From Candidatus Omnitrophota bacterium (GTDB lineage Bacteria > Omnitrophota > Omnitrophia > Omnitrophales > Aquincolibacteriaceae): a stretch of DNA of 60,390 nt. A program made the translations under genes and the position numbers. Of the stretch, positions 37,389 through 38,316 are shown piece by piece. The stretch covers positions 1-60,390 of the forward strand of contig JACPXL010000074.1 in the NCBI GenBank assembly GCA_016196555.1, written 5' to 3'. The notes under the pieces were generated by a model. That model was not told the origin of the DNA. It was given only the letters and a program-made list of their open reading frames with translations, and ran no database searches. Position 1 is the stretch's first letter; every line of letters starts with the position of its first letter.

Positions 37389-37820
37389 TTATTCAAGCAA
37401 ATGCCAGGCTTCCCGAAAAATATGTGATTTTGGTTTGCGTTGCCGTTTTTCGGATTCAACCAATGCAATCGCGCTTTTGTAAGATAAAAATTCCACAATG
37501 GGTAGGACATAGCAAATATCAAGATTTTCGATATAACAAATAGCAAAATCGAAATCTCCAAGACCGTATAAAGCCCTCAACATTCTCCGTCGGTTGGTCT
37601 TCGTTCGACGTGTATCAACAAAATAACTTCCTTGGCAATGCCACGCACTTTTAATTTGTATCTTTATGAATTTTCCTTTCACGGCAATTACCAAATCATA
37701 AGGAAGCCGGTCTCCAACAGGACGCAGGACTTCACAACCTAATTTCAACAGTTTGGTAACGACAAAACTTTCAGAAATATCAGATTTTAATTTTGTATCA
37801 GAAGTTTCTTTGGTAAGCAT
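37389..37820 (-). CDS. PD-(D/E)XK homing endonuclease, I-Ssp6803I-like (group I intron-associated)
   Basis: A 143-residue protein resembling PDDEXK_5, the family of I-Ssp6803I, the homing endonuclease of a cyanobacterial tRNA-fMet intron (about 150 residues). Visible residues are E18 in SESFVVTKLLKLG, D42 in RLPYDLVI, and Q55-I-K57 in IKIQIKSAW; Q replaces the usual acidic residue of PD-(D/E)XK, as I recall for I-Ssp6803I. The ATG at 37820 follows GGAGGG. It is encoded 198 nt past the end of the split tRNA-fMet gene on the same strand, outside the intron. It is more AT-rich than its neighbours. It would cut intronless tRNA-fMet genes. Confidence 0.8.
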   Translation of the reverse strand: MLTKETSDTKLKSDISESFVVTKLLKLGCEVLRPVGDRLPYDLVIAVKGKFIKIQIKSAWHCQGSYFVDTRRTKTNRRRMLRALYGLGDFDFAICYIENLDICYVLPIVEFLSYKSAIALVESEKRQRKPKSHIFREAWHLLE

Positions 37821-37824
37821 GAGC

Positions 37825-37854
37825 TTCCCTCCTAAATTAATTTTTTGGAGGGAA
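37825..37854 (-). promoter_or_regulatory. Inverted repeat sequestering the endonuclease Shine-Dalgarno
   Basis: On the minus strand TTCCCTCC (37854-37847) and GGAGGGAA (37832-37825) form a perfect 8-bp stem with a 14-nt A/T-rich loop. The 3' arm contains the Shine-Dalgarno sequence of the endonuclease gene, 4 nt before its ATG. The folded RNA would block translation. Confidence 0.7.
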
Positions 37855-37980
37855 AATCGTATCGGCCGCGGGACGGCCATAAGTCCTGGAAAGGATTTAT
37901 CCGATTTTTCTGCAGGACAAACCGAAATATCCGCTGGGATGTCTGCAACCCGAATGGAAAATATTATATTTATTTCCAAT

Positions 37981-38007
37981 AAAAAAGCCCGTCATTTCTG
38001 ACGGGCC
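37981..38007 (-). terminator. Rho-independent terminator of the tRNA-fMet gene
   Basis: An 8-bp stem GCCCGTCA/TGACGGGC with a TTTC/GAAA loop (37987-38006), followed on the minus strand by TTTTTT. It lies 11 nt after the tRNA CCA end. A T-run on the plus side too makes it potentially bidirectional. The endonuclease gene therefore needs its own promoter or read-through. Confidence 0.85.
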
Positions 38008-38017
38008 TTTTTACAAT

Positions 38018-38316
38018 TGGTAGCGGGGACAGGATTTGAACCTGTGACCTTTGGGTTATGCATCCTACTACAGCTTTCGCTGCTCTGCGATTCGCGGATT
38101 TGTAGTCTGGACTATACCTTCATCCGCACACATCCTACGGATGCCTGCCGTCTAGTCTCTACACCTTCCCGTCGTTTCCGACAGGCTTGGCTCGGTATTA
38201 CCACTCCCGAACTTCCGGGTTAAGGCTTCACCGACTTTGACAGGTTATCAATCAACCGTTACCGGCTGACCAGCCCAACTTGAGCCCAACGAGCTACCGG
38301 ACTGCTCCACCCCGCG
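38018..38316 (-). tRNA. Initiator tRNA-fMet(CAU), interrupted by a group I intron
   Basis: Exon 1 is 38316-38283 (34 nt) and exon 2 is 38060-38018 (43 nt). Joined they give a 77-nt cloverleaf with anticodon CAT, an encoded CCA, a 5-bp anticodon stem TTGGG/CCCAA and T stem ACAGG/CCTGT. Initiator marks are the unpaired position 1-72 (C1 with U72), three G-C pairs at the base of the anticodon loop and the A11-U24 pair in the D stem. The split lies between U33 and C34, so the anticodon exists only after splicing. The 222-nt interruption has group I features. No second initiator tRNA is in the window. Confidence 0.93.
38061..38282 (-). other. Group I intron in the tRNA-fMet anticodon loop
   Basis: A 222-nt self-splicing-type intron without an ORF. 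The 5' exon ends in U and the intron ends in G, as group I introns require. P7 strands GACTA (38157-38153) and TAGTC (38114-38110) are seen, the latter within a GGTATAGTCC block typical of bacterial tRNA introns. Other stems: GGTT/AACC (38257-38243), CCCG/CGGG, GTCG-GAAA-CGAC (38182-38171), CATCC-GTA-GGATG between the P7 strands (P8), and CAGC-GAAA-GCTG near the 3' end (38082-38071). Two GAAA tetraloops are expected tertiary contacts. Exact P1 pairing remains open. Confidence 0.88.

What the first reader, a model, noticed from the sequence alone, without database searches (positions are those of the whole stretch)
37389..38316. Initiator tRNA-fMet gene split by a group I intron, next to an I-Ssp6803I-like homing endonuclease
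Seen: the minus strand at 38316-38283 and 38060-38018 joins into a complete 77-nt initiator tRNA (CAT anticodon, C1-U72 mismatch, three G-C pairs below the anticodon loop, encoded CCA). It is broken between U33 and C34 by 222 nt that carry a P7 pair, a P8-like hairpin and two GAAA-capped stems, and that end in G after a 5' exon ending in U. A 143-residue PD-(D/E)XK protein with E18, D42 and QIK follows 198 nt downstream. Known: I-Ssp6803I of a cyanobacterium is a PD-(D/E)XK homing endonuclease of a tRNA-fMet intron that cuts the anticodon region. Inference: this is a related mobile system in a different lineage, placed in a tRNA needed for all translation initiation.
Basis: partly seen in the sequence, partly recalled or inferred. 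Interest (0 to 1): 0.93.

Follow-up and report, generated by a model that had tools for sequence, protein, structure and literature searches.

The report
Intron-split start tRNA, endonuclease outside intron
In an uncultured Omnitrophota bacterium, the only start-codon tRNA gene we could find is interrupted by a self-splicing-type intron, and the DNA-cutting enzyme that probably spreads this intron sits just outside it; the same pair, with the enzyme gene inside or outside the intron, recurs across many bacterial phyla, so how such enzymes move into and out of introns can now be tested at one site.

Summary
Exons 38316-38283 and 38060-38018 (minus strand) join into a complete initiator tRNA. 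The 222 nt between them are a group I intron (RF00028, 52 bits), with P3 and P7 pairing in 76 of 76 homologues. The 143-aa protein is PF11645 (1.1e-38), and its only solved relative is I-Ssp6803I (7.5e-45). No intact initiator tRNA was found in the genome (86% complete).

This HEG subfamily occurs in Omnitrophota, Cyanobacteriota, Bacteroidota and several other phyla, almost always with an intron-bearing tRNA-fMet, in two layouts: in the intron's P1 loop (41) or free-standing nearby (44). At least 9 switches separate the layouts. Free-standing HEGs are under purifying selection and track their intron (Mantel r 0.88). In 15 cyanobacterial loci the free-standing HEG trails an in-register remnant of intron core, so it came out of an intron. 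Of 35 HEG-bearing Omnitrophota genomes none has an intact tRNA-fMet by pattern, against 207 of 317 without the HEG.

Best reading: a split homing unit, a new variant of the I-Ssp6803I/tRNA-fMet intron system. Splicing, cleavage and homing are inferred.

The parts
38283..38316 (-). 5' exon of tRNA-fMet (34 nt, ends at U33)
   Evidence: Joins with the 3' exon into tRNA-Met(CAT) by ARAGORN
38061..38282 (-). Compact group I intron, 222 nt, begins CAAG and ends in G; no ORF inside
   Evidence: RF00028 52 bits; P3/P7/P6/P8 covariation in 76 homologues; splice sites
38272..38286 (-). P1 helix: exon GGCU + intron CA pairs with internal guide UGGGCU across a 3-nt loop (AGU); U38283.G38275 at the 5' splice site. 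This loop is where the HEG sits in internal relatives
   Evidence: Unconstrained MFE fold; layout of relatives
38018..38060 (-). 3' exon of tRNA-fMet (43 nt, CATAACCC...CCA)
37981..38006 (-). Intrinsic terminator (GCCCGTCA loop TGACGGGC + T run) between tRNA and HEG
   Evidence: 6 terminator-like sites in the region against 1.6 expected; sequence
37828..37833 (-). Shine-Dalgarno AGGAGG for the HEG
37389..37820 (-). Free-standing PD-(D/E)XK endonuclease gene, 143 aa, I-Ssp6803I subfamily (E17, D42, Q55-x-K57)
   Evidence: PF11645 1.1e-38; 2OST 7.5e-45; alignment

Best explanation
A two-piece (split) homing unit. [quoted passage not shown] its cognate I-Ssp6803I-type endonuclease is encoded 198 bp downstream as an ordinary gene. 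The intron splices out so that the tRNA works. [quoted passage not shown] Repair of the cut from the intron-bearing copy would transfer the intron, and gene conversion reaching a further few hundred bp would carry the HEG along. In this subfamily the HEG has repeatedly switched between the intron's P1 loop and flanking DNA; at least in one cyanobacterial lineage it moved outwards. Shown: the anatomy, the family memberships, the two layouts, repeated switching, purifying selection, HEG-intron co-inheritance and absence of the intact site by pattern in HEG-bearing genomes. Inferred: splicing, cleavage specificity here, homing and co-conversion.
For: RF00028 match and covariation in P3, P7, P6 and P8. 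Spliced tRNA complete, no other initiator tRNA found. HEG belongs to the I-Ssp6803I subfamily with catalytic residues conserved, intact ORF with strong SD. The relatives scored for layout, 41 internal and 44 free-standing, accompany an intron-bearing tRNA-fMet. Free-standing HEGs: median dN/dS 0.09, internal 0.12. HEG and intron distances correlate: r 0.88 for free-standing, 0.57 for internal, permutation p 0.001 each. Of 35 HEG+ Omnitrophota genomes none has an intact tRNA-fMet by pattern, against 207 of 317 HEG- genomes; Fisher p 2e-15. Nine layout changes on each of the HEG and intron trees; AU test rejects one clade of Omnitrophota free-standing HEGs, p 0.005.
Against: No splicing, cleavage or homing data. 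The window's HEG has a long branch (0.78), so its specificity may have drifted. Among the 8 Omnitrophota free-standing loci alone, HEG-intron co-inheritance is not significant (r 0.36, p 0.13). Synteny around the tRNA is not conserved in family members, so no clean empty site was found for this very locus. The HEG/intact-site exclusion is not corrected for relatedness, and the genomes are incomplete.
Confidence: 0.76

Rival explanations
1. The HEG is a passenger on its way out: it once mobilised the intron, now has no role, and the intron is inherited vertically.
For: Long HEG branch. About half of the intron-positive Omnitrophota genomes have no HEG (78 by pattern, a few of them false, against 35 with HEG). 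A truncated HEG remnant exists in G223 (L157).
Against: Intact ORF, strong SD, all 43 invariant columns of the aligned subfamily kept; free-standing HEGs elsewhere have dN/dS near 0.09.
Confidence: 0.13
2. The free-standing HEG works mainly as an addiction gene: it makes loss or replacement of the intron-bearing initiator tRNA lethal by cutting any intronless allele, rather than driving transfer.
For: HEG+ genomes lack intact tRNA-fMet by pattern (0/35 against 207/317); the tRNA is essential and apparently single-copy here.
Against: The same pattern follows from ordinary homing; the scattered distribution over phyla points to transfer; the two roles are not exclusive.
Confidence: 0.08
3. The 3'-exon fragments and HEGs beside tRNA-fMet are traces of integrative elements that use the tRNA as attachment site, the HEG being their cargo.
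For: tRNA-fMet 3' fragments occur away from the tRNA in G003 and G014 (L207, L211) and behind the HEG in L035 and L045. In one Omnitrophota genus the HEG comes with AbrB-like and LAGLIDADG-like genes.
Against: No integrase next to the window's HEG in the ORF list. The Nostocales remnant behind the HEG is intron core P2-P4, not exon. Nearly all HEGs remain beside an intron-bearing tRNA-fMet.
Confidence: 0.08
4. Assembly or binning artefact.
For: Draft genome, 97 contigs, contamination 5.55.
Against: tRNA, intron and HEG lie mid-contig; the intron is of Omnitrophota type, and the same layout recurs in independent genomes.
Confidence: 0.02

Closest known systems
I-Ssp6803I and the Synechocystis PCC 6803 tRNA-fMet group I intron (655 nt, 150-aa ORF; PMC1995217)
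   Same: Same host gene, homologous intron type, same PD-(D/E)XK endonuclease subfamily (53% identity).
   Different: There the HEG is inside the intron; here the intron is 222 nt without ORF and the HEG is a separate gene downstream. Different phylum.
[quoted passage not shown]
   Same: HEG outside an ORF-less intron and beside the intron-bearing gene; presumed target is the intron insertion site.
   Different: Those are phage protein-coding genes, read as a step towards HEG entry into an intron. Here it is a chromosomal initiator tRNA, another nuclease family, many phyla, both layouts with repeated switching, and remnants that show outward movement in one lineage.
ORF-less group I introns in bacterial tRNA genes (cyanobacterial tRNA-Leu and tRNA-fMet, Azoarcus tRNA-Ile; PMC3984707, PMC5733544)
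   Same: Compact self-splicing-type intron in the anticodon loop.
   Different: Those carry no endonuclease of their own; here a cognate endonuclease lies next door.

Membership tests
Group I intron (RF00028) | Covariance-model score above the curated cut-off | tested here: met
   52 bits against 50; most homologues score 54-81
Group I intron (RF00028) | P3/P7 core pairing supported by covariation | tested here: met
   76/76 canonical at every P3 and P7 pair; P7 A-U/G-C/U-A, P3 U-A/C-G
Group I intron (RF00028) | U.G wobble at the 5' splice site and terminal G | tested here: met
   5' exon ends in U paired with G38275; intron ends in G
Group I intron (RF00028) | Self-splicing | not testable with these tools
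   needs RNA work
Initiator tRNA | CAT anticodon, unpaired 1-72, GGG/CCC at 29-31/39-41, complete cloverleaf | tested here: met
Initiator tRNA | Only initiator tRNA of the genome | tested here: inconclusive
   None other found but the genome is 86% complete
I-Ssp6803I homing endonucleases (PF11645) | Family profile and structural relative | tested here: met
   132.8 bits, cut-off 26.1; 2OST 7.5e-45
I-Ssp6803I homing endonucleases (PF11645) | Catalytic residues E, D, QxK | tested here: met
   D42, Q55, K57 invariant and E17 nearly invariant; the solved 2OST chain has Q there
I-Ssp6803I homing endonucleases (PF11645) | Encoded within the tRNA-fMet intron | tested here: not met
   HEG is 198 nt beyond the tRNA 3' end; a layout difference, not a sequence-family criterion
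I-Ssp6803I homing endonucleases (PF11645) | Cuts intronless tRNA-fMet at the anticodon | not testable with these tools
   Indirect only: HEG+ genomes lack the intact site by pattern
Collaborative homing pair | Free-standing HEG adjacent to the gene that holds an ORF-less intron | tested here: met
Collaborative homing pair | HEG target coincides with the intron insertion site | not testable with these tools
   Inferred from I-Ssp6803I

The most novel reading that the evidence does not exclude
The split layout is a selected, recurrent form of group I intron mobility on bacterial chromosomes: HEGs leave the intron (P1 loop) for flanking DNA, go on mobilising the intron in trans, and can return. 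The traffic would then be two-way, whereas the usual account has HEGs only invading introns.
Probability: 0.42. Interest if true: 0.78.

Novelty: new variant of a known kind. Interest (0 to 1): 0.64.

Why it matters
How a homing endonuclease gene comes to live inside a self-splicing intron is an open question argued from a few phage cases. Here one nuclease subfamily, one conserved target and one intron type occur in both layouts in dozens of sequenced bacteria, some culturable (Nostoc, Anabaena, Spirosoma, Arcicella), with at least nine switches, in-register intron remnants behind free-standing genes, and a genus in which the downstream HEG cassette is present or absent. Direction, mechanism and cost of the switch can be tested. 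The target is also the tRNA that starts all translation, so the host pays directly if splicing fails.

Tried and rejected
(1) Empty site by synteny in the same family: the neighbouring lipid/diacylglycerol-kinase-like gene has close orthologues only in G003 and G004, and no tRNA-fMet lies beside them. (2) First remnant test with nhmmer had a flawed control: short contig-end stretches entered the shuffle set unshuffled, so its p values were not used; replaced by the in-register offset test. (3) Intron remnant behind the window's own HEG: only AATGGG in the right place, z 3.3 against one profile and not best against the other; not claimed. (4) 3'-exon fragments behind the HEG in L035 and L045 first looked like proof that the HEG sat in a tRNA copy; similar fragments elsewhere (L207, L211) make att sites an alternative, so this is left open. 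(5) Stronger Shine-Dalgarno in free-standing HEGs holds only in Omnitrophota (4/7 against 1/36 internal, Fisher p 0.001), not in Cyanobacteriota or Bacteroidota. (6) Plasmids: no match; phage records: only distant partial matches. (7) The one apparent intact target in a HEG+ genome (G014) is not a tRNA (L211). (9) The primary papers on I-Ssp6803I (Bonocora and Shub 2001; the 2007 structure; the 2008 specificity study) are not in the library, so whether the downstream HEG of Nostocales was noted before could not be checked. (10) No structure prediction was run, because a solved homologue matches over nearly the whole length.

Full report
CHECK OF THE OBSERVATION. On the minus strand, 38316-38283 and 38060-38018 join into a 77-nt tRNA-Met(CAT) with C1 x U72, GGG/CCC under the anticodon loop and encoded CCA. 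ARAGORN finds it spliced, and unspliced only when introns are allowed. The only Rfam match in the 60-kb window is the group I intron model at 38293-38093, 52 bits, E 2.3e-10. The splice sites give a 222-nt intron, CAAG...GGATG, with P1 formed by GGCU^CA and UGGGCU, U.G at the splice site, and an unconstrained fold finds that helix. The match is only 2 bits above the cut-off, so I tested the fold on homologues: in 76 introns every P3 and P7 pair is canonical, with compensatory changes in P3, P7, P6 and P8. The group I assignment is secure.

THE PROTEIN. The ORF 37820-37389 (143 aa) matches Pfam PDDEXK_5 at E 1.1e-38. Its single sequence match among solved structures is 2OST, which is I-Ssp6803I (the name is from my own knowledge; the record says putative endonuclease), E 7.5e-45 over residues 8-142. 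The gene has AGGAGG at 37833-37828, and a strong terminator (38006-37981) separates it from the tRNA. It is therefore an independent gene, 198 nt beyond the tRNA end, and not part of the intron.

THE GENOME. It is a draft of 1.69 Mb in 97 contigs, 86% complete, in the phylum Candidatus Omnitrophota: the protein search placed homologues in genomes of the same phylum, and contigs of the same size and position are titled Omnitrophota in the public collection, for example G018:C1 (420119 bases) = JAKLIQ010000001. tRNA searches found 31 good tRNA genes; the two other CAT tRNAs lack initiator features. The pattern of an intact tRNA-fMet is absent. A missing second copy in the unassembled part cannot be excluded.

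RELATIVES. A profile search of 84,980 species genomes matched 260 stretches, 178 of them encoding a relative; 80 were kept, and IMG/VR gave 4. ARAGORN with introns shows that almost every HEG lies in or next to a tRNA-fMet with an intron of group I size. After removal of duplicates, 41 HEGs (with I-Ssp6803I) are internal and 44 free-standing. All internal HEGs examined start within about 30 nt of the 5' splice site and are followed at once by the internal guide sequence (TGGGCT or close): they occupy the P1 loop, often with the C-terminal codons running into P2 and P3. Free-standing HEGs mostly begin 54-113 nt downstream of the tRNA on the same strand. Cyanobacteriota were 24 free-standing to 1 internal among the loci kept, Bacteroidota 11 to 2, Omnitrophota mostly internal. 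The window's locus belongs to the Omnitrophota minority.

SWITCHING. On the HEG tree the layout changes at least 9 times (shuffled labels: 24-30 in the five values printed); one clade of Omnitrophota free-standing HEGs is rejected (AU p 0.005) and one clade of all free-standing HEGs is rejected (p 3e-71). The groups were named after the tree had been seen, and many forks are weak because there are only 137 columns. The intron tree also needs 9 changes and splits into an Omnitrophota type and a Cyanobacteriota/Bacteroidota type (100/98). Distances of HEG and intron correlate strongly even when the two are separate genes (r 0.88, 39 loci, p 0.001), though not significantly for the 8 Omnitrophota free-standing loci alone (r 0.36, p 0.13). 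The two parts therefore usually travel together. Free-standing HEGs show median dN/dS 0.09 (internal 0.12), so they are kept as working proteins (simple counting method, some pairs near saturation).

DIRECTION. Behind the HEG domain of free-standing Nostocales genes, in the register expected for an intron-internal HEG, lies degraded intron core (P2-P4). In 15 loci the in-register score has z 4.0-6.3 and beats every other offset tested within 300 bp on either side. These loci are one lineage, so this counts as one event, but it says that those HEGs came out of an intron. In Omnitrophota L035 and L045 a piece of tRNA-fMet 3' exon follows the HEG; similar pieces elsewhere could be attachment sites (L207, L211), so that is only suggestive. 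For the window itself the direction is not settled.

SITE OCCUPANCY. In 352 Omnitrophota genomes the intron-bearing pattern occurs in 78 (a few false), the intact pattern in 208 and the HEG in 35. Of the 35 HEG+ genomes, 32 carry the intron pattern. The single intact-pattern hit among them is not a tRNA (L211), so 0 of 35 against 207 of 317 without HEG (Fisher p 2e-15; not corrected for relatedness; 7 of 8 sampled intact hits were full intronless tRNA-Met). This is what an active endonuclease against the intact site would leave. In one genus (g45) the tRNA-fMet(intron)-tRNA-Ser interval is 132-182 nt without HEG, and in a member of the same family group 1,710 nt with a cassette of AbrB-like, LAGLIDADG-like and PDDEXK genes placed after the tRNA terminator: the downstream slot is itself gained or lost.

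MECHANISM. The best-supported reading is a split homing unit: intron in the target, endonuclease next door, transferred together by co-conversion. Cleavage and homing are inferred from I-Ssp6803I and from the occupancy pattern; splicing is inferred from the fold. Rivals are a decaying passenger, an addiction role, and cargo of tRNA-targeting elements.

KNOWN AND NEW. The Synechocystis intron and I-Ssp6803I are known (PMC1995217), and collaborative homing between a free-standing HEG and an ORF-less intron at the same site is known from phages and proposed as a route into introns (PMC3984707, PMC2988022). A library search found no report of this system in Omnitrophota. I could not read the primary I-Ssp6803I papers, so an earlier remark on the cyanobacterial downstream gene cannot be excluded. 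I file it as a new variant of a known kind.

Noticed in passing
L001 about 1453-1811 (G000:C5, same genome): A second group I intron (77.4 bits) splits a tRNA-Asn(GUU) in its anticodon; a serine-recombinase-like ORF runs into the tRNA 3' end, and a GIY-YIG-like ORF lies upstream, bounded by a partial copy of the tRNA 5' end.
   Followed up: partly
L133 3001-3492, L134 2287-2782, L135 3001-3506, L136 3001-3520: Four IMG/VR contigs carry this HEG with its stop codon inside, or directly at, the 5' end of an intronless tRNA-Met; in L133 and L135 the anticodon stem differs from the bacterial one just where the endonuclease should bind. A phage-borne cutter with its own resistant tRNA is conceivable.
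   Followed up: partly
L190 (G231), L163 (G232), L157 (G223) against L159, L160, L162: In one Omnitrophota family the slot between tRNA-fMet and tRNA-Ser holds a cassette (AbrB-like or small HTH gene, LAGLIDADG-like endonuclease, PDDEXK HEG or fragment) or is empty.
   Followed up: partly
L047, L048, L049, L051: Distant PDDEXK_5 proteins (about 30% identical) lie beside tRNA-Thr/Tyr/Gly clusters; in L049 a 95-bit group I intron sits between tRNA-Thr and tRNA-Gly, probably in tRNA-Tyr. Possibly a second tRNA-targeting branch.
   Followed up: no
L207 (G003), L211 (G014): Fragments of the tRNA-fMet 3' half away from the tRNA, possibly attachment sites of integrated elements.
   Followed up: no
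L035 1486-3084: The free-standing HEG frame runs on without a stop for 532 codons into downstream sequence, passing through a tRNA-fMet 3'-exon fragment.
   Followed up: no
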